A stretch of 64,000 nt of DNA from Paraburkholderia sp. Tr-20389 (lineage in GTDB: Bacteria > Pseudomonadota > Gammaproteobacteria > Burkholderiales > Burkholderiaceae), in NCBI RefSeq assembly GCF_017104565.1, contig NZ_JAAGPD010000015.1:1-64000 (forward strand), in the 5' to 3' direction. Below are positions 33,970 through 59,266 of this stretch, in pieces. Each line of letters starts with the position of its first letter. Position 1 is the stretch's first letter. The position numbers and the translations under genes are program-made. The notes beneath the pieces were generated by a model that saw nothing but the letters and a program-made list of their open reading frames with translations, made no database searches and was not told where the DNA came from.

Positions 33970-34129
33970 GGGGCTTTGCGCGGTCGCGATGCGCCGCCGC
34001 TCTGCCGGGGCATCGATGCACGCCCGCGCCGGCTGGTGTAACCTCGCGTTTCAGGGATCGGCACCCGCCACTGGCGACCTGCCGATTCCTCATACGATCG
34101 CGCGCGCCGGTGTTAGACTTGCGCGCGCC

Positions 34130-34176
34130 GGAGATGGCATTCTCCTAAACCGCCCTCGTGGCTGATGATGCCTGCT
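34130..34176 (+). promoter_or_regulatory. Fluoride riboswitch (crcB motif)
   Basis: The sequence matches the crcB-motif aptamer: GGAGATGGCATTCTCC forms the first stem with its internal loop, then TAAACCGCC, and GGCTGATGATGCCTGC closes the second stem and pseudoknot region. It lies about 80 nt upstream of the crcB start. A possible expression-platform stem follows (GCTGCGG 34187-34193 with CCGCAGC 34215-34221). Confidence 0.93.
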
Positions 34177-34256
34177 TCGCCCGGAAGCTGCGGACGTTGC
34201 AGTGTCACGCCCCGCCGCAGCCCGGTTCGTCGACGTTCGGCTTTCCAGGCTTGCTC

Positions 34257-38880: not shown

Positions 38881-38912
38881 AAAAAAAAGGCGCCACGTTG
38901 CCGTGGCGCCTT
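38881..38912 (-). terminator. Minus-strand intrinsic terminator
   Basis: A perfect 11-bp stem AAGGCGCCACG/CGTGGCGCCTT with loop TTGC. On the minus strand the hairpin is followed by eight T residues. No minus-strand gene precedes it. Confidence 0.8.
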
Positions 38913-38913
38913 C

Positions 38914-38949
38914 AAAAAGTTCTAGCCATTCCGAGGGCCGTGCTAGAAC
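38914..38949 (-). terminator. Second minus-strand terminator, directly upstream
   Basis: The 8-bp stem GTTCTAGC/GCTAGAAC is followed on the minus strand by TTTTT. It sits in tandem with the terminator at 38881-38912. Confidence 0.65.
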
Positions 38950-39266
38950 CTGAGAGACGGTACTGAAAAGTGGTGCAGAAATTGGGGTTTCGAAGCGCAG
39001 ACTGCTTGACGGGACGCGAACGCTGCGATTAGACGCGCGCTGCGATATGTCGTTTTTACTTACGATTACTGCGCACTTTCGAAATATAGTTCCATTTTTT
39101 ATGGTAATGCTGACTAAGTCAAGCAAAATTTAATCGCTTCCGGAGGTCCAAAAGTTACATTCCTATACAATGAATCGTAGTAGGAAAAAAGACACTTAGG
39201 CCTTGCTGAGAGAGGGTCTGAGAGCGCTTCAGACGGGTCTGTGCCGCTGAGCGCGTTCCGCAATAT

Positions 39267-48100: not shown

Positions 48101-48490
48101 ACGGAGTTCAGCATCATCGCGTTGATTGCGGTGATATTGCTGATTGGCATCGTGAAGAAGAACGCGATCATGATGGTCGATTTTGCGATCGACGCGTCGC
48201 GCAAGGGGCTTTCTTCGCGTGATGCGATCGAGCAGGCCTGTTTGCTGCGGTTTCGGCCGATCATGATGACCACCTGCGCCGCGATGCTCGGCGCGCTGCC
48301 GTTGGCGTTCGGGCGCGGTGAAGGCGCTGAACTCCGGGCGCCGCTCGGGCTCGCGATCGTGGGTGGGTTGATCGTTAGTCAGATGCTGACGCTCTATACC
48401 ACGCCCGTCGTTTATCTTTATATGGATCGGATTCGGGTTCGGTGGGAGGCGCGGCGTGGGCGCCGCCGGGGTGCGCAGCCGACCAGTTGA
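45197..48490 (+). CDS. mdtC: RND efflux transporter, MdtC-like, with low-complexity insert
   Basis: A 1097-residue RND pump, second transporter of the mdtABC operon. [20 protein letters not shown] and [20 protein letters not shown] are family hallmarks, as is [20 protein letters not shown]. MdtC proteins are usually about 1025-1040 residues; an insert of about 70 residues at about 770-842 is Ser/Thr/Ala/Gly-rich ([35 protein letters not shown]) and lies in the periplasmic docking/porter region just before [14 protein letters not shown] precedes the ATG. No outer-membrane factor gene follows; the palindromic element begins right after the stop. Confidence 0.93.
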
Positions 48491-48579
48491 TGGTGGGTGC
48501 TGTTTTTGCCTTCTCGGCGCGGGCTTCGCCGGTTGGGTTTCGGTCTTGTCTTCGGCTTTTTGCTTTTGCTTTTGCTTTT

Positions 48580-48727
48580 GCTTTCGCTGGCATCCGCGAT
48601 TTCACGTCGATGTTCATGCGTTGCCCCTGTGCGGGGCGGCACTCACTTTCTTTGCCGCCGCAAAGAAAGTAAGCAAAGAAAGCGGGCTAACACCGCCAGC
48701 CCTTGTTCTTGCCTGCGGGCCCCCAAC
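48580..48727 (+). repeat. Left inverted-repeat arm of copy A
   Basis: Runs from GCTTTCGCTGG through TTGCCCCTGTGCGGGGCGGC to CGGGCCCCCAAC. Complementary to 49093-49240 apart from two positions. Confidence 0.85.
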
Positions 48728-49092
48728 GGGTCCCGCACTCCACACGGCAACACTTTGTTTTACGCCCGTTGCCACCGCCTTGAACAGGCGCATCACCCAC
48801 TCCAGTCACCCGTAGCGCAGCCAGCGGCAGCGAACGGTTTGCGACGCCCAGGTGGCAAACTGTGTGTAGGTTGTCGCACCGTATGCGTTGGCGATCCTAC
48901 GACACCGATCCCGCTTTTCAGTCCGGAGTGGTGCATTTGCGTCGAGACGGCCTACACACAGTTTGCCACCTGGGCGGCAGTGGACGCCTGGTAACGCGGG
49001 TCGTGACGCGGGAGTGTGAAGAGGGTGATGCGTGCCTTAGCGCGTTGGCAACGCGCGAAAACAAGTGCGTTGCCGCCTGAAGCGTAAGAACT

Positions 49093-49240
49093 GTTGGGGG
49101 CCCGCAGGCAAGAACAAAGGCTGGCGGTGTTAGCCCGCTTTCTTTGCTTACTTTCTTTGCGGCGGCAAAGAAAGTAAGTGCCGCCCCGCACAGGGGCAAC
49201 GCATGAACATCGACGTGAAATCGCGGATGCCAGCGAAAGC
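49093..49240 (-). repeat. Right inverted-repeat arm of copy A
   Basis: Reverse complement of the left arm with two mismatches; ends GCCAGCGAAAGC beside a 13-bp tandem repeat. Confidence 0.85.
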
Positions 49241-49310
49241 GAAAGCAAAAAGCGAAAGCAAAAAGCGAAAGCAAAAAGCGAAAGCAAAAAGCGAAAGCAA
49301 AAAGCGAAAG
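49239..49310 (+). repeat. 13-bp tandem repeat at the right end of copy A
   Basis: Five copies of GCGAAAGCAAAAA (49239-49303) plus a partial sixth. It extends outward from the terminal GCGAAAGC of the arm. The left end of the copy has TTTGCT hexamer repeats instead. Confidence 0.9.
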
Positions 49311-49360
49311 GCAAGAGACCAAAACCCAAACAGCGACTGCGTCGCAGACAAGAAAAAACC

Positions 49361-49825
49361 TTAAAGCTTCTGCACCATTGCCAGATCAAAAATTCTGACC
49401 CACTGCCGAGCCTCGCGCTCGGACCTCATCGGCAGACGCCACTCAGGATGCGCGGCATCTTTCACCTCGAGTTTCACCTGCCAGCGCTCGCCATCCCGCA
49501 CGGGCTGCGCCCCGCGAAGATCGGCAAAGATATACGAACCGCGCAAACCGGCGACCTGCATGTCGCACAACCGCTTGCCGGCAGCAAGCCGTACACCGCC
49601 CCACTCCCCCTTGATCTCATGGGTCCAGTCGCCGTCGCGAATGTTCGCCGAGACTTCCTTGTGGCGGCGCCACCACCACGCAAGCGCCGCGAGCACCAGC
49701 GCGGCAAAAAGAATCGCCACGCCCACGGCAACGCCAAAGCCAAAATGCGCGGACAGCACATGAAACGCCTGCACACAACCGTAAATCAAGGCGATCAGGG
49801 CAAACAGCGCGACGACAATCGGCAT
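49361..49825 (-). CDS. Membrane protein with cytosolic domain, unknown function
   Basis: 154 residues: two N-terminal hydrophobic helices (MPIVVALFALIALIYGCVQA; VAVGVAILFAALVLAALAWW) and a soluble domain of about 95 residues beginning RRHKEVSANIRDGDWTHEIK and ending EREARQWVRIFDLAMVQKL. The latter part has a strand-rich, helix-capped pattern reminiscent of a small PH-like fold, but that is a guess. No family is recognised. It is convergent with mdtC, the palindromic element lying between them. Confidence 0.72.
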   Translation of the reverse strand: MPIVVALFALIALIYGCVQAFHVLSAHFGFGVAVGVAILFAALVLAALAWWWRRHKEVSANIRDGDWTHEIKGEWGGVRLAAGKRLCDMQVAGLRGSYIFADLRGAQPVRDGERWQVKLEVKDAAHPEWRLPMRSEREARQWVRIFDLAMVQKL

Positions 49826-49959
49826 GGCTCGTGTCCGGCAAGTGCGCTACAGCAGCAGGAAATGCATCCGTTCACGCGAAGCAAACGGCACGTAGAGAAA
49901 AGCGCGGCGCGTGAGGCGCATGAAGCTGCACCACCCACCCGCCACGCGGTCAAAAGCCC

Positions 49960-50523
49960 TTATGGCTGCTTATGCGTCGCCGCCCACTGCTTCAACGCCT
50001 GCATCGTGTTCTCGACATGCTTGTCAGGCGAGAGACTCGTGTACTCGTAAATAATCTTGCCGTCAGGCGCAATCACATACGACACACGGTTCGCCATCGA
50101 CGCATGCATCGGCAGCCCCGCGTCGTACGCGTTGATGACCTTCGAGTCGGGATCGGCGGCCACCGGGAATTTGCTGCGGCATTCGCTGACCGAGAACTTC
50201 GTCAACGTGTCGATATTGTCGTGCGACACGCCGATCACCGTCGCGCCGTACTTCTTGTATTCGTCGACGGCCTCCGCGAATTCATGTGCCTCGATCGTGC
50301 AACCCTTCGTGAACGCGGCCGGATAGAAGTACAGGACGACAGGGCCTTTCTTCAACGCATCGGCAAGCGCATACGTATAAGTCTTGCCGCCCAGCGATGC
50401 CTGCGTCGTGAAGTCAGGTGCGTCGTCGCCCGGCTTCAGCGTGGCGGACGCCGTCAGCGCATGCAGCGACAAACCCGCGCACAGCAAAGCCGCCAGCGCG
50501 AACGGCACAATCTTTTGCTTCAT
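49960..50523 (-). CDS. Exported peroxiredoxin (AhpC/TSA, BCP-like)
   Basis: A 187-residue protein: signal peptide MKQKIVPFALAALLCAGLSL with cleavage around ASA, then a thioredoxin-fold peroxiredoxin. FYPAAFTKGCTIEAHEFAEA holds the peroxidatic Cys (about 75) with the conserved Thr and downstream Glu; a second Cys (about 115, SVSECRSKFPVAAD) could be resolving. It would reduce hydroperoxides in the periplasm. The ATG at 50523 follows GAGGA; an upstream extension would disrupt the signal peptide. Monocistronic. Confidence 0.9.
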   Translation of the reverse strand: MKQKIVPFALAALLCAGLSLHALTASATLKPGDDAPDFTTQASLGGKTYTYALADALKKGPVVLYFYPAAFTKGCTIEAHEFAEAVDEYKKYGATVIGVSHDNIDTLTKFSVSECRSKFPVAADPDSKVINAYDAGLPMHASMANRVSYVIAPDGKIIYEYTSLSPDKHVENTMQALKQWAATHKQP

Positions 50524-50668
50524 CTCGAGTCCTCGAATCGTGAGCGCACGGTCTCCGTGCATCGGCTTCGCGACGCCATCCATCACGCGGCATCGCGACC
50601 TTCAGCTTCCGTCCCATATTGGATCACGTTTGACGTTTGCGCGTCGGCGTGCAGCGCAGAGCCGTGAA

Positions 50669-52003
50669 TCACTCAACCAGATGCGCGCCGAACCACGCGG
50701 CCGCCGACAGATTCAACTCGGCGAGCACGATCGGCGTGAGCGCAGCGAACTCTTCCAGCGACTGCGCGCTCGCAATCGCCGCAGCATCCTGCGCCTCGCC
50801 CGCCGCTTCCGCGATGCTCAACAGCGCACCCATCGGCCCCGCGCGCTCGACGATCGCATCGCGAATCAGCGGCGACAGATCGAGCGGATCGAGCGTCGCG
50901 TCCGGCGTCGAATCGACAAGCACATGCACCAGCGAGAACACGCCCGTCATGAACGCCGCGTCGGCGAAGGCCTCGTCGTTCGGGTGAATCCAGCGCGCGG
51001 CCAGCTCCATGAAGCGCGCGCGCGTACCCGCCAGTTGCACGAGGGGATCGGAGCGCCAAGGCAGTTCGCCGATGCCCGCGTAGAGCAGCAACTGCGCCCA
51101 GCGCGCGATCTGCCGCGTGCCCGTCGCGATGATCGCCTCGCGCAGCGACGCGATATTGCGCCCCAGGCCGAATGCGCTGGAATTAACGAGCCGCAGCAAC
51201 TGCATCACCACATTCGGATTGCGCTTCAGCTCGGCTTCGAGTTCGACGATGCCCGCATCGCGCGCGAGCAGCGCCAGCAGGCGCAACAGCGACGTGCGCG
51301 ACGAACGCGTGCGGCGCGTCGACAGCACCTGCGGCCGCGCGAAGAAGTAACCCTGGAACAGGTCGAAGCCCAGCTCGCGGGCGAGCGCGAAGTCTTCGCG
51401 CGTCTCGACCTTCTCGGCGATCAGCGTCTTGCCGTGCCTGGCGAGCGCCTGCGTGAGGCCCGGCAATTGGGCGCGGTCCGTCTCCAGAAAATCGACCTTG
51501 ACGATATCCGCATACGGCAGCGCGGCATACAGATTCGGCGACAGTTCGCACACGTCGTCGAGCGCGACGCGAAAACCCGCGCGGCGCAATTCGTCGATGC
51601 GGGCAATGAGCCGCTCGTCGAACTCGACCGTCTCGAGAATTTCGAGCACGAAGCGCTCGGGCTCCATCAAATGCACGATGTCGTCGAACAGCAGATCGCG
51701 GCCGATGTTCACGAAGCCACGGTGCGAGCCGAGCACGGACGGCACGCCGATGCTGCCGATCGTGCGCACCACGACCTGGGCCGTGGCCTGCGCGTCGTCG
51801 GACACTTCCGCGTAGTTGTGCGCGCTGCCGCGAAACAGCAGCTCGTAAGCATGCAACGCGCCATCGCGGTCGAGGATCGGCTGACGCCCGACATAGACGA
51901 ACTGCGCCGAAGAGATCGCTTCGTCCGCATCTTCCTCGGCGCCTGCTTGCGCAAACGTTTGGAGGCGGCCGGCATCGTCAGTGTCTTGATACGGATCAGG
52001 CAT
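50669..52003 (-). CDS. EAL-HDOD signalling protein with degenerate EAL domain
   Basis: 444 residues in the YuxH/CdgJ layout: an N-terminal EAL-like domain (about 35-240) and a C-terminal HDOD domain (about 240-440). Catalytic positions are eroded: YELLFR replaces EAL-x-R, DDVCELSPNL replaces the DDFGTG motif and AEKVETR replaces AEGVE, so phosphodiesterase activity is unlikely. The HDOD part shows LKRNPNVVMQLLRLVNSSAF and REAIIATGTRQIARW. Such proteins act through protein contacts in motility and virulence control. Divergent from the PAS-GGDEF-EAL gene. Confidence 0.9.
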   Translation of the reverse strand: MPDPYQDTDDAGRLQTFAQAGAEEDADEAISSAQFVYVGRQPILDRDGALHAYELLFRGSAHNYAEVSDDAQATAQVVVRTIGSIGVPSVLGSHRGFVNIGRDLLFDDIVHLMEPERFVLEILETVEFDERLIARIDELRRAGFRVALDDVCELSPNLYAALPYADIVKVDFLETDRAQLPGLTQALARHGKTLIAEKVETREDFALARELGFDLFQGYFFARPQVLSTRRTRSSRTSLLRLLALLARDAGIVELEAELKRNPNVVMQLLRLVNSSAFGLGRNIASLREAIIATGTRQIARWAQLLLYAGIGELPWRSDPLVQLAGTRARFMELAARWIHPNDEAFADAAFMTGVFSLVHVLVDSTPDATLDPLDLSPLIRDAIVERAGPMGALLSIAEAAGEAQDAAAIASAQSLEEFAALTPIVLAELNLSAAAWFGAHLVE

Positions 52004-52321
52004 TTTTCACAGCTTGAATTCTGAAAACGGCTTGCATGCGGGGCTTGCATCGGGGGCTTGCCGCCCCGCCTCATCTGGCGGATTAACGGAACGCCCTGGC
52101 CGCCACTTTAGCGGAATCCCTCCGACCATGTACAGGCGCCGAGCGGCTTTCCATTCCTTACCATATGTTATGGCGCCTTTTATGTCCAACGGCTAAAGAT
52201 TCCGCTGAAAACGTCGATAACCCGTTCTGATGGACGGCCTCGCGCCTGCCCCGATTCGGCCAGCCGACGGGCACCGCAGCGACGTCCAGCCTCAAGACGA
52301 ACCGGGTAGTCAGCGATACAC
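52004..52321. other. Divergent promoter region in the signalling cluster
   Basis: 318 bases between the EAL-HDOD gene and the PAS-GGDEF-EAL gene. It holds the FliA promoter at 52194-52220. On the minus strand, TAAAG at 52106-52110 with TCCGTTAA at 52083-52090 is a weak FliA-like pair with spacing one base too long. Confidence 0.5.
52194..52220 (+). promoter_or_regulatory. Sigma-28 (FliA) promoter
   Basis: TAAAGATT-N11-GTCGATAA matches the flagellar consensus TAAAGTTT-N11-GCCGATAA at 14 of 16 positions with exact spacing, about 100 bp upstream of the PAS-GGDEF-EAL start. Confidence 0.75.
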
Positions 52322-54151
52322 ATGGAAGCGACCAGGATCACCCCAGCCCGCCGGGGCTTGCTGCGCACGGCGATCGACCGATTTCGCGCGGTCCGTCAGC
52401 CCGCACGCGCGACGGTTGCGCCAGGCCTGCCGGCCGTCTCGCATGGTCTCGAACAGGCCGCAGGCGCCGTCGACTTCCTCGCGCACGTGGCGCGCAATCT
52501 CACCTTTCTGTATGTGTCCGAGGCGAGCCTGCGCTTCATCGGCTATCACCGCGAATATCTGGAAACGGTCACGCTGCACGAACTCGTCGCACCAGGCGAC
52601 GTGGCGCGGCTGGATGCCGCACTGCGCCGCGCCGACGAAAGCGGCGCCGTCGAAAAGATCACGCTGGACCTGATCAAGTCGCTGACCTATCCCGTGCCCG
52701 TCGAGCTGCGCATCGCGCGCAACTGCCACGACGGCATCGAGGGCTTTGCGATCGCCGGCTTCGACGTGTCCAGCTGGCGCGCGACGGAAGCGAGCCTCAA
52801 ACATCAGCTGCATCACGACCATCTGACGGGTCTCGCGAACGTGCCCGCTCTCGTCGAGGAAATGCGGCACGCGCAGCAGAAGGCGGATGCGACGGGCAAG
52901 TCCGCTGCCCTGCTGCTGCTCGATATCGACGACTACCAGCGCGTGAACCGCGCGCTCGGCTACGACGCCGGCGACGAGATGCTGCGCGACACCGCACGGC
53001 GCCTGTCCAACATGACGACCCAAGGCGAAGTGATCGCGCGGATCTCCAGCGACGAATTCGCAATCCTGCTGCCGCCCGTGCACGGGCGCGCGGATACCGC
53101 GCTGGCCGCCGAAGCGCTGGCGCGCCGGCTGTTGACGGCCATCCAGCAGCCGTACACGTTCAACCGGCAGCCCGTGCATCTGTCGGCGAGCGTCGGCATC
53201 GCGCTCTATCCCGACACGCAGCACGCGGACGAGTCGCCCGACGCGCCGTCGCGGGACAGCCAGTTGCTGCGCTGGGCCGATCATGCGCTGTCGCGCGCGA
53301 AGGCCGCGGGCGGCAACACGCTCGCGTTCTACGTGCCCGACGACAGCCCCGCCGACGCCGAACGCCTAAAGCTCGAATCGGACCTGTACGACGGCGTGCG
53401 CAACGGCGAGTTCTCGCTGCACTTCCAGCCGATCACGAGCAGCCAGACGCGCGGCGTGGTCGGCGTCGAGGCACTGATCCGCTGGCAGCATCCCCTGCAC
53501 GGCCTCGTGCCGCCGTCGATGTTCATTCCCCTCGCCGAATCCGTCGGCCTCATCAACTACCTGGGCAACTGGGTGCTGAAGGCCGCGTGCATGCAGCTGA
53601 TCCGCTGGGATACGCAAGGCATCCGGCTGCAATACGTCGCCGTCAACGTATCGCCGCAGCAGTTCCGCGATCCGCGCTTCAAGGAAAGCGTGCGCGAAGC
53701 GATCGCGCTGACGGGCATCGATCCGCACCGGCTCGTGTTCGAGATCACGGAAAGCCTGCTGATGCACGACCCGCTGCATGCGACCACGCTGCTCGAAGAA
53801 CTGACGGGCCTCGGCATCCGCTTCGCCGTCGACGATTTCGGCACCGGTTATTCGAGCCTTGCGTATCTGCAACGCTTTCCGCTTGCCAAACTGAAAATCG
53901 ACCGGAGTTTCGTGGAGAATCTGCTAACCTCGCGCAACGATCAGGCGATCGTCAGCGCCGTGGTGGGCCTCGCGCAGACGCTCGACCTCGAACTCGTCGC
54001 GGAAGGCGTCGAGACGGAAGAACAACGCGACCTGCTGACGGAGATGGGCTGCGACCACATCCAGGGCTGGCTCGTCTGCAAGGCACTCCCATCGGAAGAA
54101 CTCGCACAGCGTTTCGAATCGCGCGCGCTTCATGTGCATGGTGAAGCGTGA
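52322..54151 (+). CDS. PAS-GGDEF-EAL c-di-GMP phosphodiesterase
   Basis: 609 residues: a PAS-like domain (about 45-160, LTFLYVSEASLRFIGYHREY), a GGDEF domain (about 165-335) and an EAL domain (about 345-600). The GGDEF signature is SSDEF, so cyclase activity is doubtful. The EAL site is intact: GVEALIRWQHP, VNVSPQQF, FEITESLL, DDFGTGYSSL, LKIDRSF, VAEGVETEEQ and HIQGW. No membrane helices. With a FliA promoter upstream, it resembles flagellar-regulon phosphodiesterases such as E. coli PdeH in regulation, lowering c-di-GMP to permit swimming. The HDOD gene follows 67 bp downstream. Confidence 0.93.
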   Translation: MEATRITPARRGLLRTAIDRFRAVRQPARATVAPGLPAVSHGLEQAAGAVDFLAHVARNLTFLYVSEASLRFIGYHREYLETVTLHELVAPGDVARLDAALRRADESGAVEKITLDLIKSLTYPVPVELRIARNCHDGIEGFAIAGFDVSSWRATEASLKHQLHHDHLTGLANVPALVEEMRHAQQKADATGKSAALLLLDIDDYQRVNRALGYDAGDEMLRDTARRLSNMTTQGEVIARISSDEFAILLPPVHGRADTALAAEALARRLLTAIQQPYTFNRQPVHLSASVGIALYPDTQHADESPDAPSRDSQLLRWADHALSRAKAAGGNTLAFYVPDDSPADAERLKLESDLYDGVRNGEFSLHFQPITSSQTRGVVGVEALIRWQHPLHGLVPPSMFIPLAESVGLINYLGNWVLKAACMQLIRWDTQGIRLQYVAVNVSPQQFRDPRFKESVREAIALTGIDPHRLVFEITESLLMHDPLHATTLLEELTGLGIRFAVDDFGTGYSSLAYLQRFPLAKLKIDRSFVENLLTSRNDQAIVSAVVGLAQTLDLELVAEGVETEEQRDLLTEMGCDHIQGWLVCKALPSEELAQRFESRALHVHGEA

Positions 54152-54218
54152 CCCACACGATGCGTAACGACACCGTGGCGCCACTCACTGGAAACTGTAT
54201 GCCTCTTGCGGGACTCTC

Positions 54219-55676
54219 ATGCTAAAGGCTGCGCTGCTTGACCGGCTCTGGGCTCGCATGAACGAGCGAGGCGATTTTCCGATGCTGCAGCAGTCGCTCC
54301 GCTCGACGATGGCCGCGATGAGCAACGACGACCTCGACTTCAGCGGGCTCGTGCAGATCGTGCTCTCCGACTTCGCGCTGACACAGAAGGTGCTGCGTCT
54401 CGCGAATTCGGCGATGTACATGGCGTTCGGCGGCAACATCACGACCGTCTCGCGCGCGCTGATGGTGCTGGGCATGGATGCCGTCGGGCACCTGGTGGTC
54501 GGCCTGAAGATCGTCGATCACTTTCATCACAGCGTGCCGCGCCGTATCGACGCGAAACTCGAACTCAACCGCACCATGCTGTCCGGCTGCGTCGCGCGCA
54601 AGCTCACCGAGCGCGGCGACCTGCGCGAGGGCGAGGAGGCCGTCGTCTGCACGCTGATGCGTCAGATCGGCAAGCTGCTCGTCGTGTTCTATCTCGATGC
54701 CGAATGGGACCAGATTCGCCGTCAGCGCGACACGGGCATGGGCGAGAACGAAGCGTGCGAAAGCGTGCTCGGCGTGACGTTCGAGGAAATCGGCCTCGAA
54801 GCGGCGACGCGCTGGCGTCTGCCCGATCTGATTCGCGTGGGCATGACCGAGTTCGATCCGCTGCAGAACGACGAGCCGCGCCAGGTGCAATGGCTGCGCG
54901 CGATCACGAACTACTCGACGGAAGTGGCGAACGTGCTGACGCAGCCGCATCTGCCCGAGTCGCAGCGCGACGTGCGCATCGCGGAACTCGCGCAGCGCTA
55001 CAGCCGCACGCTCAATACGGATCCCGACGTGCTCGTCGAGATGAGCCTCACGCTCGCCGAAGAAGAAACCCGCAACGGCCTGATGCGCGAGATCTTCGAA
55101 CTGCGCGCGAACGCCGATGCGATTGCGCGCGAGTCGCTCGACCCTGAATCGTGCATCCGCGCGGGCGTCAGTGAATTGCAGGCGTTGCCGAGCGACAGCG
55201 GACTCGCGCCCGCGCTCGCGATGGCTTCGGAGACGGTGCTAGCGGGACTGCAGTTCGAGCGCACGGTGGTGTTCGTGCGGCACGGCAGCGGCATCTTCAA
55301 AGCGTCGATGGGTTTCGGCGCGAAGATCGACGCGGCGCTACCCAAGCTCAGCTTCGCGACGGCGTTCGAACCCGACGTGTTTCATCTCGCGATTGCCAAC
55401 TCGGTTGGCATCTTCATCGAGAACGCGCGCGATCCGAAAATGCATGCACGACTGCCGGACTGGTATCGCCGTGCATTCGACGGCGTGCATTCGTTCGTGC
55501 TGTTGCCCGTGGTGCTCGAAAACAAGTCGACGGTCGCCCTGCTCTACGGCGACTGGGCGCACCATGATCTGCCGCGCCGCATCACGCAGCGGGAAATGGC
55601 CGCGCTCAACGAACTCGCACGCGAGCTGGGCCGGTTCTTCGCTTATGCGCCCGTGAGCGAAGTAGAAATGCTTTGA
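54219..55676 (+). CDS. HDOD-domain signalling protein
   Basis: 485 residues. An N-terminal HDOD domain (about 15-215) shows LSDFALTQKVLRLANSAMYM and SRALMVLGMDAVGHLVVGLK; HDOD folds resemble HD phosphohydrolases but lack the metal site and act as scaffolds. The C-terminal half (about 300-480) looks GAF-like (VLAGLQFERTVVFVRHGSGI, VHSFVLLPVVLENKSTVALL). Transcribed in the same direction 67 bp after the PAS-GGDEF-EAL gene, so it may share the FliA promoter. The stop codon lies inside a hairpin. Confidence 0.9.
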   Translation: MLKAALLDRLWARMNERGDFPMLQQSLRSTMAAMSNDDLDFSGLVQIVLSDFALTQKVLRLANSAMYMAFGGNITTVSRALMVLGMDAVGHLVVGLKIVDHFHHSVPRRIDAKLELNRTMLSGCVARKLTERGDLREGEEAVVCTLMRQIGKLLVVFYLDAEWDQIRRQRDTGMGENEACESVLGVTFEEIGLEAATRWRLPDLIRVGMTEFDPLQNDEPRQVQWLRAITNYSTEVANVLTQPHLPESQRDVRIAELAQRYSRTLNTDPDVLVEMSLTLAEEETRNGLMREIFELRANADAIARESLDPESCIRAGVSELQALPSDSGLAPALAMASETVLAGLQFERTVVFVRHGSGIFKASMGFGAKIDAALPKLSFATAFEPDVFHLAIANSVGIFIENARDPKMHARLPDWYRRAFDGVHSFVLLPVVLENKSTVALLYGDWAHHDLPRRITQREMAALNELARELGRFFAYAPVSEVEML

Positions 55677-55720
55677 TGCCAGGGCGCAGGCATCAAAGCC
55701 ATGCGCCCTCTTCCATCGAC

Positions 55721-55750
55721 ATGCGCGGCCGATGCTGCCCGGCCGCGCAT
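55721..55750. terminator. Hairpin between convergent genes
   Basis: A perfect 10-bp stem ATGCGCGGCC/GGCCGCGCAT separated by 10 bp. An additional 9-bp hairpin TTTGATGCC/GGCATCAAA (55672-55697) lies just before. Neither has a good T-run. Confidence 0.5.
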
Positions 55751-55759
55751 CGTCTTGCC

Positions 55760-57112
55760 TTAGTCCTCGATCCGCTCCAGCCCTGTCGCCTCCGCACTGC
55801 GATCGGCGATACCCGCCCACGCGGCGGCGACGAGACCCATCTGCGCGATGTCGCTCACCTGCACACCGTCGAGCCCGGAGCACGCGCTTTCGATGTGCGC
55901 CCACGCGCCGCGCTCCAGCGCTTCGACGAGCGTGAGCAAGGTGCCGAGCGCGCCTTCGCGCAGCAGGATCGCATCGCGGATCGGCTTGGACAGCGCGAGC
56001 ACGTTGAGCGTATGTTCGAGCGAGCCGCCGAACACCGAATCGACGAACGAGAACACGCCCGTGAGAAAGGCCGCGTCGGTTTCGTCGCGACCGGCTTCGG
56101 GCAGACGTTCGACGGCCAGTTCCATGAAACGCGCGCGCGTCGCGGCGAGTTGCAGCAGCGGATCGTCTTCGAGCGCGACCTTGCGGCCGTCCGCGTACAA
56201 CAGCAGTTGGGTCCAGCGTGCGATGCGGTTGGTGCCTGTTGCGTTGATTGCTTCGCGCAAGGTCGTGACCTTGCGGCCCATCGCGAGACCGCTCGAATTG
56301 GCGAGGCGCATCAGGTGCATCACCAGCACCGGGTTCAGCTTCAATTCGGCTTCGAGCTGTGCGACCGTGGGTTCGCCGCCGAGCAGTTGCAGCAGATTCA
56401 GCAGTGCATGACGCGGCGCGCTGACCTTGCGTGCAGCCGCACCTTGCGGATTCGCGAAGTAAAAGCCCTGAAAGCGATCGAAGCCGAGATTGAACGCCTG
56501 CTCGAACACCTCTTGCGACTCGACGCCCTGCGCGATCAGCAGCTTGCCTGCCGATTTGAGCACGCTCGCGAACTTGGGCAGCATGGCCTGCGGGATGCGG
56601 TTCATGTCGATCTTCACGGCGTCCGCATACGGCAGCAGACGGGCAAAGGTTTCGTCGGCTTGCGCGACGTTGTCGATCACGAAGCGATAGCGGCGGCCGT
56701 GCAGCTCGACGATGCGCGCGATCAGCGTGTCGTCGGCGAGGATGTCGGCCGGCAACTCGAACATGAAGCGCTCGGCGGGCAGGCTGCGGATCGCGTGGTC
56801 GAACAGCAGTTCGCGCGTGACGGGCAGATAGCCCGGATGATTGCCGAGCGCGGCGCGCACGTCGTGCTGCAACACGGCCTGGATGAAGCGTTCGGCGGCG
56901 CTCGGGCCGGCCTTCGGCTGCTCGCTGTCCGCGTCCTCTTCGGCTTCGGCGGATTCAGCGGCTGGCGGTTGATACAGCTTGAGTTCGAACGCGCACAGCA
57001 TGTTGTCGCGGTTCAGGATGGGTTGGCGAGCAAACGAAACGTTTGCGCGCGCATCCTGCGTGATGCCCGGAACGCCTTCTGCCTGGCGTTCAGCGACTGC
57101 GGTGGTGGTCAT
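55760..57112 (-). CDS. EAL-HDOD signalling protein, second and more degenerate
   Basis: 450 residues, same EAL-HDOD plan as the gene at 50669 but further eroded: FELKLYQP in place of EAL-x-R, IDNVAQADET in place of DDFGTG and AQGVES in place of AEGVE, with an acidic insert (AAESAEAEEDADSEQ) after the first strand. The HDOD domain is well kept (LKLNPVLVMHLMRLANSSGL, REAINATGTNRIARW). A catalytic role is improbable. The ATG at 57112 gives MTTTAVAERQ; an upstream Arg-rich extension is not credible. A TAAAAT hexamer about 140 bp upstream could be its -10. Confidence 0.88.
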   Translation of the reverse strand: MTTTAVAERQAEGVPGITQDARANVSFARQPILNRDNMLCAFELKLYQPPAAESAEAEEDADSEQPKAGPSAAERFIQAVLQHDVRAALGNHPGYLPVTRELLFDHAIRSLPAERFMFELPADILADDTLIARIVELHGRRYRFVIDNVAQADETFARLLPYADAVKIDMNRIPQAMLPKFASVLKSAGKLLIAQGVESQEVFEQAFNLGFDRFQGFYFANPQGAAARKVSAPRHALLNLLQLLGGEPTVAQLEAELKLNPVLVMHLMRLANSSGLAMGRKVTTLREAINATGTNRIARWTQLLLYADGRKVALEDDPLLQLAATRARFMELAVERLPEAGRDETDAAFLTGVFSFVDSVFGGSLEHTLNVLALSKPIRDAILLREGALGTLLTLVEALERGAWAHIESACSGLDGVQVSDIAQMGLVAAAWAGIADRSAEATGLERIED

Positions 57113-57324
57113 TCCCGGTCCCCTGTCGACCCGGGTTCGCGTTTGCGCGCCGAACCGGATCCCGTGCAAGTAGTTGTGGCGAAGCGTTGCGCTTCGTGCT
57201 CTCAGCATCGTTCTGGCGACGACTCTGTGCGACCTGTCGAGCCGTCTTCCCCGTGCGCCGATTTTAGCGCACGCAGACTGGCGCAGGGGCACGCCGAAGC
57301 GAAAAAAAGACTATAAAACAAGGG

Positions 57325-57358
57325 CAAAAAACGCCACCGGCCGCACGAGGCGGCCGGT
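57325..57358 (-). terminator. Terminator of the amino-acid-binding protein gene
   Basis: The 9-bp stem ACCGGCCGC/GCGGCCGGT is followed on the minus strand by GGCG and then six T residues. Confidence 0.8.
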
Positions 57359-57403
57359 TTGTCACTCTGTTGCTGCGATGTTCCGCAACGGCTGGCGCGT
57401 GCC

Positions 57404-58195
57404 TTACTTGAGCACGACCTTCACGTCGAAGTACTTCGCGGCGAGCTTGTCGATGGTGCCGTCGGCTTTCAGTTCCTTGAGCGCCTGGTTGACGGCGTCC
57501 TTCAACTGGGCGTCGCCCTTGCGCAGACCGAAGCCGACGCCCGAGCCGAGCAGTTTCTCGTCGGACACGGCCGGACCGGCGAATTCGAAGCCGGCGCCTT
57601 GCGGCTTCTTGAGGAAGCCCTTCGATGCCGCTTCAGCGTCCTGGAACGATGCATCGAGGCGACCTGCGACGAGGTCCGCGTAGACCTGATCCTGCGTCTG
57701 ATAGGGAATCACGTCGACGCCGGCGGGCGCCCACTTCGCCTTCGCGTAGGTTTCCTGGATCGTGCCTTGCAGCACGCCGACGTGTTTACCCTTGAGCGAA
57801 GCGGGCGTCGGCTGCAGGCCGCTGCCTTTCTTCGCGATCATCTGGTTGGGGATCACGTAGATGGGATCGGTGAAGTCGATGACGGCGCGACGCTGGTCGG
57901 TGATCGACATATCCGAGTTGATCGCGCTGAACTTGCGGGCCTGGAGCGCGGGGATAAGGCCGTCGAACGAATTCTCGACCCACACGCACTTCGTCTTGAG
58001 CTTGGCGCAGACGGCGTTGCCGATATCGATATCGAAGCCTTGCAGGTCGCCGGCGGGCGACTTCGATTCGAACGGAGCGTAGGACGCTTCGACGCCGAAG
58101 CGGATTTCCTTGATTTCGGCGGCCGATGCTTGTGCCGTTGCCGTCACGGCGATGAATGCGGCGAGCGCAGCCGTTTTATGCCAACTCAATTTCAT
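57404..58195 (-). CDS. ABC transporter substrate-binding protein for cationic amino acids
   Basis: A 263-residue periplasmic protein with a signal peptide (HKTAALAAFIAVTATAQASA) and the SBP family 3 fold. EIRFGVEASYAPFESKSPAG, GFDIDIGNAVCAKLKTKCVW, FDGLIPALQARKFSAINSDM and SITDQRRAVIDFTDPIY are the ArgT/HisJ/AotJ hallmarks, pointing to lysine, arginine, ornithine or histidine. Only the binding protein is here; permease and ATPase genes are not in the window. GAGGAAAG precedes the ATG. It lies beyond the palindromic element from the ast genes, which fits arginine/ornithine uptake feeding that pathway. Confidence 0.92.
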   Translation of the reverse strand: MKLSWHKTAALAAFIAVTATAQASAAEIKEIRFGVEASYAPFESKSPAGDLQGFDIDIGNAVCAKLKTKCVWVENSFDGLIPALQARKFSAINSDMSITDQRRAVIDFTDPIYVIPNQMIAKKGSGLQPTPASLKGKHVGVLQGTIQETYAKAKWAPAGVDVIPYQTQDQVYADLVAGRLDASFQDAEAASKGFLKKPQGAGFEFAGPAVSDEKLLGSGVGFGLRKGDAQLKDAVNQALKELKADGTIDKLAAKYFDVKVVLK

Positions 58196-58465
58196 TTGTT
58201 GCTTTCCTCAGGAAGTGCAGGCGGCGGTATGCCCCGCCTTGGGCGTGCGGATGATCATTGCAGCGCTGGATTGGCGATTCAAACGACCTCGCCAGGATTG
58301 GTGCGGCGCACCAGGCGTTCCGCGAGGCGGGGATTTTACAGGGTCTTCGGTTTGCGCTACGTGGCGCGGGTTGTTGTTTCTCTCGCGGAGCGGTGTGCGG
58401 TTTCTGGTTTTTCGGTTTTCACCGCGGTGGGGAAGTTGCAAATTCTTGTCGGTGGCGTGCAAGCC

Positions 58466-59263
58466 TTCGTGGCGCGGGCGTTGCCGGTTTGGTTTTTTGC
58501 TTCTGCGCTGGCGTCCGTGATTCGCTGGCGTCTGGGATTCGCTGGCGTCCGCGATTCGCTGGCGTCCGCGATTTCATGTCGGTGTTCAGGCGTTGCCCCT
58601 GTGCGGGGCGGCACTTACTTTCTTTGCCGCCGCAAAGAAAGTAAGCAAAGAAAGCGGGCTCACCCCGCTAGCCCTTGTTCTTGCCTGCGGGCCCCCAACG
58701 GGTCCCGCACTCCACACGGCAACACATCGTTTTGCGCCCGTTGCCAGCGCCTCGAACAGGCGCATCACCCACTCCACTCACCCGCAGAGCAGCCAGCGCC
58801 AGCGACTCGTCTGCGCCGCCCAGGTGGCAAACTGTGTGTAGCTTGTCGCACCGTACGTGTTCGCGATCCTACGACACCGATCCCGCTTTTTAGTCCGGAG
58901 TGGTGCACTTCCATTGCGACGGCCTACACACAGTTTGCCACCTGGGCGGCGGTCGACGTCTGGTAACGCAGTTTGTGACGCGGGAGTGTGGAGTGGGTGA
59001 TGCGTGCCTTAGCGAGTTGGCAACGCGCGAAAACAAGTGCGTTGCCGCCTGAAGCGTAAGAACTGTTGGGGGCCCGCAGGCAAGAACACGGGCTGGCGGT
59101 GTGAGCCCGCTTTCTTTGCTTACTTTCTTTGCGGCGGCAAAGAAAGTAAGTGCCGCCCCGCACAGGGGCAACGCATGAACACCGACATGAAATCGCGGAC
59201 GCCAGCGAAAGAAAGACCGCCAGCCAGCAAAAAAACCAGAATGGCGACTGCGTCGCAGACAAG
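58466..59263. repeat. Palindromic dispersed element, copy B
   Basis: Second copy of the element at 48507-49352, same orientation, offset by exactly 9972 bp across the core. Arms correspond to about 58552-58699 and 59065-59212; the inner inverted repeat starts at 58817. The copies differ at several arm positions, and four of these differ on both arms so that pairing is kept (see findings). It fills the space between astE and the binding-protein gene. The left end has 17-bp tandem repeats. No convincing protein is encoded. Confidence 0.85.
58506..58573 (+). repeat. 17-bp tandem repeat at the left end of copy B
   Basis: Four copies of CGCTGGCGTCCGCGATT (variants at two or three positions), the last forming the element's own terminus. 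Confidence 0.88.
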
Positions 59264-59266
59264 AAC

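What the first reader, a model, noticed from the sequence alone, without database searches (positions are those of the whole stretch)
48507..59263. Two copies of a large non-coding palindromic element 10 kb apart
About 0.8 kb each, same orientation, core offset exactly 9972 bp with no net gap. Arms of 148 bp form a near-perfect inverted repeat, with a nested 26-bp inverted repeat and small hairpins inside each arm. No transposase is encoded. From memory, stretches like TTTGCCGCCGCAAAGAAAG occur widely in Paraburkholderia and are often mis-annotated as short proteins. It could be a MITE mobilised in trans, a REP-like element, or a structured RNA locus.
Basis: partly seen in the sequence, partly recalled or inferred. 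Interest (0 to 1): 0.8.

Follow-up and report, generated by a model that had tools for sequence, protein, structure and literature searches.

The report
Self-recombining giant palindromes between genes
This soil bacterium carries over a hundred copies of a large non-coding DNA palindrome parked just behind genes; in relatives the copies keep their places but overwrite one another's sequence, which makes this an unusual kind of bacterial repeat.

Summary
The two copies belong to a genome-wide family: about 120 copies in this Paraburkholderia genome. Its arms occur in 133 of 398 genomes drawn from the bacterial family, 10 of 25 genera. The element encodes no recognisable protein, folds as one giant hairpin, and sits at gene 3' ends: 53 convergent, 42 co-directional and 3 divergent gene pairs of 98.

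A trans-mobilised MITE is not supported as the current mode. Between two Paraburkholderia caribensis strains all 22 full copies examined have an occupied counterpart. Flanks are 99.2% identical but elements only 93.4% (17 with both flanks matched). Where orthologues differ, another copy is closer in 113 of 119 windows, so copies overwrite each other by ectopic gene conversion. At fixed sites, species can carry essentially unrelated interiors inside conserved arms. Interiors and the segment between two copies invert.

It resembles REP/BIME repeats in location but differs in size and in having no linked RAYT. Rfam sRNA RF02421 appears to be a fragment of its arm. How it first spread and its cellular role remain inferred.

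The parts
48491..48582 (.). copy 1, outer left arm: T/G-rich stretch from the stop codon of the RND-transporter-like gene to the core; variable modules
   Evidence: begins right after the stop at 48490
48583..49240 (.). copy 1, palindromic core (658 bp)
   Evidence: unit conserved in 99 fetched full-length copies
48623..48637 (.). arm hairpin 1, left (GCCCCTGTGCGGGGC)
   Evidence: four of its five pairs unchanged in all 166 aligned rows (165 distinct arms found by similarity, plus the query)
48642..48673 (.). arm hairpin 2, left; its family shows paired changes (T-A to C-G; T and A runs 3/3 or 4/4)
48845..48875 (.). inner inverted repeat, left
   Evidence: I13, 94% complementary
48876..48945 (.). 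loop; its motif (up to 2 mismatches) has 121 hits in the genome
48946..48976 (.). inner inverted repeat, right
   Evidence: I13
49147..49178 (.). arm hairpin 2, right
   Evidence: D3, I11
49168..49251 (+). match to Rfam RF02421 (Bp1_684), 23.7 bits, below gathering 44; mirrored at 48563-48652 on the - strand, 25.6 bits
49183..49197 (.). arm hairpin 1, right
49241..49360 (.). copy 1, outer right arm: 13-bp tandem repeats and outer terminus GCGACTGCGTCGCAGAC (49333-49349), reaching the stop codon of the convergent gene at 49361
58506..58554 (.). copy 2, outer left arm with 17-bp tandem repeats
   Evidence: D4
58555..59211 (.). copy 2, palindromic core
   Evidence: 93% to copy 1
59212..59266 (.). 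copy 2, outer right arm with terminus GCGACTGCGTCGCAGAC (59244-59260), next to the stop of the astE-like gene (59267)

Best explanation
The element is a non-autonomous, non-coding, REP/BIME-like repeat, about 0.65 kb of core plus variable ends. It is a giant interrupted palindrome that lives at gene 3' ends, mostly between convergent genes, where its outer ends often abut the stop codons. SHOWN: about 120 copies in this genome; arms found across the family; lineage-specific but mirrored interiors; sites stable between strains; tracts of a copy replaced by sequence like that of other copies; inversion of interiors and of one gene segment between two copies. INFERRED: the replacement is RecA-type ectopic gene conversion, anchored in the near-invariant arm hairpins and inner repeat, and is made frequent because the palindrome forms hairpins during replication and is broken there. 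The copies thus act as one recombining pool: a new interior can sweep through existing sites without transposition. INFERRED and weaker: at its sites the element serves as, or replaces, a two-way 3'-end RNA hairpin, which makes it tolerated or useful. Original spread to new sites was by an unknown route. The strain-level evidence comes from P. caribensis megaplasmids, not from the window's own genome.
For: Copy number: loop motif 121 hits, reversed-pattern control 1; inner repeat 115+117, control 0. Context: 53/98 convergent against 27/305 background gene pairs, 3/98 divergent against 83/305. Conversion: 22 of 22 full copies of one strain have an occupied counterpart in the other (17 matched by both flanks, 5 by one); for the 17, flanks 99.20% and elements 93.43%, and the orthologue is not the best match in 9 (13 of all 22). 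In 119 windows where orthologues fall below 95%, a paralogue is closer in 113 (mean 94.9 against 86.8). Differences form tracts, in one of three loci confined almost wholly to one half-arm. Across species: at two orthologous sites G000 and G096 interiors are 48.4% and 46.4% alike (shuffles average 45.2 and 45.0, highest 47.9 and 47.7 of 50), while the two sites within each genome are 91% and 89% alike. Inversion: 1 of 21 elements between strains, 5 of 18 against a third strain; a 1.9-kb segment between two copies is inverted in MBA4. Mirrored interiors: 59-76% against 53-56% shuffled, 32 of 32 elements tested.
Against: No experiment. A break at the hairpin was not shown. SbcC: a strong match (best stretch over 230 bits) in 11 of 118 genomes (2 over the curated cut-off), only a 26.7-bit fragment in this one; but 9 of those 11 carry the element too, so absence of SbcC is not required. 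Arms inside one copy are not more alike than arms of different copies, 0.767 against 0.764, nor across species, 70.6 against 69.6, so arm-to-arm correction is not what keeps interiors palindromic. Donors could in part be allelic DNA from other strains. Among 131 windows where orthologues are at least 95% alike, a paralogue is closer in 46, so the effect has a background. T-runs precede the hairpins at the ends, which is not intrinsic-terminator geometry. The location bias is weaker in P. caribensis: 3 of 22 and 3 of 23 copies at divergent pairs.
Confidence: 0.62

Rival explanations
1. A MITE: a non-autonomous transposon whose ends are recognised in trans by a transposase encoded elsewhere, still moving.
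For: Inverted ends, high copy number, empty sites in other species: 12 mapped empty sites among 30 loci at the copy-2 locus, and no element at 3 of 3 loci in P. phymatum. Copies are 80-100% (median 87%) like copy 1 in this genome.
Against: 22 of 22 full copies have an occupied counterpart between strains; the 23rd site of the other strain holds a truncated copy. The two 852011 sites first without an MBA4 partner overlap split elements in MBA4; of four MBA4 copies first unpaired, two are those sites, one lies at a rearrangement junction, one has flanks without a match in the other records. Ends are ragged and modular. The one PF01797 hit is not flanked by the element. Other transposase families were not searched.
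Confidence: 0.2
2. A selected structured RNA or two-way 3'-end element: read-through from either gene makes a giant hairpin that ends or stabilises the transcript; repeat dynamics are secondary.
For: Location at 3' ends; core a median 82.5 nt from a gene 3' end (148 sides) against 189.5 nt from 5' ends (48 sides). MFE z = -32. Terminator-like sites within 120 nt of 61/129 element-facing 3' ends (37 before the core) against 25/181 controls. Paired changes in arm hairpin 2. Rfam RF02421 matches the arm; the paper behind it places that candidate under 'verified sRNAs' in a figure legend (PMC3521395, sections 16 and 17 read).
Against: Shuffled sequence also scores: 17/129 element ends and 4/181 controls; T-runs precede hairpins. 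Interiors are swapped for unrelated sequence, so no particular RNA sequence is kept. Empty orthologous sites have a short hairpin or nothing obvious.
Confidence: 0.35
3. Hypermutation inside a fragile palindrome, not copying between copies.
For: Elements diverge about 8 times more than flanks.
Against: The changed tracts match other copies: a paralogue is closer in 113 of 119 windows, at least 97% identical in 57 and identical in 10.
Confidence: 0.03
4. Allelic import: converted tracts come from the same locus of other strains by horizontal recombination.
For: Not excluded; strains other than those held were not compared.
Against: Tract edges lie inside the element while flanks stay 99% identical, and good matches are paralogues on the same replicon, e.g. 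97% against 88% for the orthologue.
Confidence: 0.12

Closest known systems
REP / BIME repeats (GTAG- and CGTC-tagged families; PMC3733652, abstract and section 15 read)
   Same: High-copy palindromic intergenic repeats, mostly between convergent and unidirectional genes, close to 3' ends; targets of IS insertion (PMC1525189, abstract read)
   Different: 20-40 bp units there, 650-800 bp here; a GTAG/CGTC-tagged unit was not established here; interiors replaced wholesale under conserved arms; turnover by conversion seen at strain level
REPIN-RAYT system (PMC3116915, abstract read)
   Same: Two inverted units forming one hairpin, dispersed, non-autonomous
   Different: No RAYT linked to the element: the single PF01797 hit (26.6 bits) has no element in its 3.3-kb locus; unit far larger
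Rfam RF02421, Bp1_684 Burkholderia sRNA
   Same: Its model aligns to the outer arm (hairpin 1 and the outer tail) of both arms of copy 1 and, over the gathering score, to an element in Caballeronia zhejiangensis
   Different: Described as an sRNA with a possible trans-acting role; here it is the end of a much larger repeat
Neisseria intergenic mosaic repeats and Correia elements (recalled, not looked up)
   Same: Non-coding mosaic repeats between genes
   Different: Recalled as shorter; not compared by any search

Membership tests
REP/BIME | Short (20-40 bp) palindromic unit with tagged end | tested here: not met
   Unit is a 656-bp consensus, 528 of 656 self-complementary; the tag itself was not tested
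REP/BIME | High copy, extragenic, near gene 3' ends, rare at divergent promoters | tested here: met
   53/42/3 of 98; weaker in two P. caribensis megaplasmids, 11/8/3 and 12/8/3
REP/BIME | Target for insertion sequences | tested here: met
   7 of 8 copies of one IS256-family element in two records (6 full, 1 fragment) lie in elements
REPIN-RAYT | Cognate Y1 transposase flanked by the repeat | tested here: not met
MITE | Defined terminal inverted repeats | tested here: inconclusive
   Outer motif GTCTGCGACGC (2 mismatches) at both ends in 37, one end in 37, neither in 24 of 98; shuffled 8 of 196 sides
MITE | Target-site duplication at insertion | tested here: inconclusive
   Empty sites only in species too diverged to align the intergenic DNA
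MITE | Autonomous partner with matching ends | tested here: inconclusive
   Only Y1 transposases searched; none linked
MITE | Insertion polymorphism between close strains | tested here: not met
   22 of 22 full copies matched by an occupied site at 99% flank identity
Rfam RF02421 sRNA | Match at or above gathering score | tested here: not met
   Window copy 1: 25.6 and 23.7 bits against 44; one match of 45.3 bits in ten relative loci scanned
Intrinsic terminator | GC hairpin followed by T-run | tested here: inconclusive
   61 of 129 element-facing ends but 17 of 129 after shuffling; T-runs lie before the hairpins
Segmental duplication | Flanking genes duplicated with the element | tested here: not met
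   matches at spacing 9972 end with the element

The most novel reading that the evidence does not exclude
A repeat family that persists by structure-driven conversion instead of transposition: the palindrome causes breaks in itself, each break is repaired from another copy, and any interior that breaks or repairs better sweeps through all fixed sites. That would be a non-coding, DNA-structure-based homing drive with exchangeable cassettes.
Probability: 0.25. Interest if true: 0.85.

Novelty: new variant of a known kind. Interest (0 to 1): 0.64.

Why it matters
Bacterial palindromic repeats are usually explained by transposition (REPINs) or by RNA function. Here sites stay put while sequence is rewritten among copies within the time in which flanks change by about 1%, so concerted evolution of dispersed non-coding DNA can be measured directly in culturable soil bacteria. 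It bears on how cells tolerate more than a hundred long palindromes, on genome rearrangement in Paraburkholderia, and on annotation: an Rfam sRNA family appears to be a piece of it.

Tried and rejected
RAYT-driven spread: one weak PF01797 hit, no element beside it. Loss of SbcC as the permissive cause: strong matches in 11 of 118 genomes only, but 9 of those 11 have the element, so not a sufficient account; SbcD and other hairpin nucleases not searched. Arm-to-arm correction keeping interiors mirrored: rejected for interiors; only the outermost 30 nt show it clearly (0.80 against 0.75). Segmental duplication: rejected. Clean insertion with target duplication: sought, none found; one MBA4-only copy sits at a rearrangement junction, another (L366) has flanks with no match in the other records listed. 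Phage carriage: none in the phage collection; two viral contigs hold an exact arm motif, one with a pair of inverted arms, possibly host DNA. Coding content: none over a cut-off in four ORFs. Covariation of arm hairpin 2 by plain alignment was confounded by a one-base length variant and redone by pattern (all 43 distinct hairpins have equal T- and A-run lengths; 39 of 43 have a Watson-Crick second pair; the pattern itself requires the rest of the stem, so it cannot miss there). The first window comparison ignored inverted orthologues and was redone. Annotation of the plasmid records could not be used for gene context, as all but one (AP028202.1) show no features in the stretches fetched. Papers: nine searches listed no description of this family as a whole; the held library lacks most subscription journals. 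PMC2267715 and PMC5719362 were seen as passages only and gave nothing for this family.
Full report
OBSERVATION. The core runs 48583-49240 and 58555-59211, with arm features exactly 9972 bp apart; the outer 148 nt of the arms are 97% and 96% alike as inverted repeats. Copy 1 with its outer arms fills the space between two convergent genes (stops at 48490 and 49361); the core of copy 2 lies 55 bp from the stop of the astE-like gene (59267) and 359 bp from the start of the next gene (58195). Gene names here are my reading of the ORFs. The strand folds as one hairpin, -506 kcal/mol against -260 +/- 7.6 in 20 shuffles. Four ORFs through the elements match no protein family over a cut-off.

A FAMILY. 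The window lies in a 9.0-Mb genome in 129 contigs, in the group I take to be Paraburkholderia from named hits. The loop motif occurs 121 times (control 1) and the inner repeat 115+117 times (control 0). In the fetched stretches I recovered 99 full-length copies, 80-100% identical to copy 1, median 87%. Ten further places were partial and left out. In the genus 103 of 118 genomes match the core query; in most of those listed only the outer arms, about 83 bp, match. With an arm consensus, 133 of 398 genomes in 10 of 25 genera of the family match.

ANATOMY. From outside in: stop codon; T-run (T5 within 40 nt of the stop in 92 of 129 element-facing ends, 13 of 181 controls); outer motif GTCTGCGACGCAGTCGC (first 11 bases with up to 2 mismatches: both ends 37, one 37, none 24 of 98; shuffled 8 of 196 sides); variable modules and tandem repeats; core start; hairpin 1; hairpin 2; interior half-arm; inner repeat; loop. 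The consensus is 528 of 656 self-complementary. Hairpin 2 shows paired change: over 43 distinct forms, T- and A-runs are always equal (3/3 or 4/4) and the second pair is C-G in 31, T-A in 8, T-G in 2, C-A in 2.

LOCATION. With a simple codon-usage gene caller of my own, 53 of 98 copies lie between convergent genes, 42 between co-directional and 3 between divergent ones (one more copy had no gene on one side). Background gaps over 50 bp: 27, 195 and 83 of 305 (Fisher p 8e-20 for convergent, 1.4e-8 for divergent). Two P. caribensis megaplasmids give 11/8/3 and 12/8/3, background 11/55/29 and 13/49/36: the same excess at convergent pairs, a weaker lack at divergent ones. Published REPs favour convergent and unidirectional pairs too (PMC3733652 section 15).

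INTERIORS ARE REPLACED UNDER FIXED ARMS. At the orthologous copy-1 site, of 30 loci fetched, 16 have both arms, 4 one arm (contig edge or partial) and 10 none. At the copy-2 site 5 of 30 have both arms; of the other 25, 12 could be mapped and are empty (155-485 bp). Interiors at the same site can be essentially unrelated: G000 against G096 is 48.4% and 46.4% at the two sites (shuffles: mean 45.2 and 45.0, highest 47.9 and 47.7), while the two sites within G000 are 91% alike and within G096 89%. G096 also holds a copy of the G000 type (85%). All 32 interiors tested are mirrored. Arms within a copy are not more alike than between copies, so mirroring of interiors is a family-wide property, not kept up copy by copy.

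STRAIN-LEVEL CONVERSION. I compared P. caribensis MWAP64 (NZ_CP013104.1) and 852011 (NZ_CP015960.1), taking sites from the half-arm search, so copies with other interiors would be missed. All 22 full elements of the former have an occupied counterpart in the latter (17 by both flanks, 5 by one); the 23rd site of 852011 holds a truncated copy in MWAP64. For the 17, flanks average 99.20% and elements 93.43%; in 9 of the 17 (13 of all 22) another copy is closer than the orthologue. In 250 windows of 21 pairs (one short pair left out), 119 fall below 95% to the orthologue, and in 113 of them a paralogue is closer; of the 131 others, 46 also have a closer paralogue. Alignments of three loci show tracts of change, in one confined almost wholly to one half-arm. 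For one half-arm the orthologue (88%) ranks below some 40 other matches. One of 21 elements is inverted between these strains and 5 of 18 against MBA4 (5 of the 23 left out: two at the rearranged pair, three without a comparable partner). In MBA4 the 1.9-kb segment between two elements is inverted. Against MBA4, 21 of 23 sites matched at once and the other 2 overlap split elements there; of four MBA4 copies first without a partner, two are those sites, one lies at a rearrangement junction and one has flanks unmatched in the other records.

MECHANISM. Shown: fixed sites, sequence shared between copies by tracts, inversion. Inferred: homologous recombination anchored in the conserved arm hairpins and inner repeat, stimulated by breaks at hairpins. 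SbcC, the hairpin nuclease partner known from E. coli (recalled), has a strong match (best stretch over 230 bits; 2 over the curated cut-off) in 11 of 118 genomes and only a 26.7-bit fragment in this one, but element and SbcC coexist in 9, including G043 with 305 first-look candidates. The 3'-end role rests on location, fold and terminator-like sites (61 of 129 ends, 25 of 181 controls; shuffled 17 and 4), against which T-runs stand before, not after, the hairpins.

KNOWN RELATIVES. Closest in kind are REP/BIME repeats and REPINs; size, lack of a linked RAYT and the conversion seen here set this apart. Rfam RF02421, from a B. pseudomallei sRNA screen (PMC3521395; passages and sections 16 and 17 read), aligns to both outer arms here below its threshold and above it in a Caballeronia element; the paper's Figure 6 legend places that candidate among verified sRNAs, so arm-like sequence is probably transcribed there.

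VERDICT. A real, widespread repeat family of REP-like habit and unusual dynamics, not described as a whole in the nine paper searches made. Original mobility and cellular role are open.

Noticed in passing
L203:10322-11691; L197:8544-9913; L201:10425-11794; L329:2306-3675; L327:10585-10838; NZ_CP012748.1 428463-429832 and 2357480-2358849: An IS256-family element (PF00872) sits inside the palindromic elements in 7 of 8 copies found in two P. caribensis megaplasmids (one of the 7 a fragment; the eighth, W01 831891, is not beside an element); none in the third record. About 8-bp duplications read at three sites.
   Followed up: partly
L183:43049-44527: A second, different insertion (inverted ends GTAACTATTCAGCG, 8-bp duplication GCGGCGGC) lies inside another element in strain MWAP64 and is absent from 852011.
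   Followed up: partly
L239:1455-1571: Rfam RF02421 'Burkholderia sRNA Bp1_684' coincides with the right arm of an element in Caballeronia zhejiangensis; the family may be a repeat fragment rather than a single sRNA gene.
   Followed up: partly
G000:C128:140190-140469: Four tandem copies (72-bp step) of the outermost arm segment beside a full element: arm ends appear to multiply locally.
   Followed up: no
L063 (G108), copy-1 site: An element without its interior: outer arms joined through a single hairpin 1, either a deletion product or an early form.
   Followed up: no
window 34121-34181 + and 38882-38960 -: Fluoride riboswitch aptamer and the Burkholderia sRNA ncS54, both over Rfam gathering scores.
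   Followed up: no
window 50669-52003 and 55760-57292: Two apparently paralogous genes about 5.1 kb apart on the - strand between the two elements, seen as direct repeats at spacing 5115.
   Followed up: no
L401 (IMGVR_UViG_3300030520_000902): A contig listed as viral carries a pair of inverted arms of this family 576 bp apart; may be host DNA.
   Followed up: no
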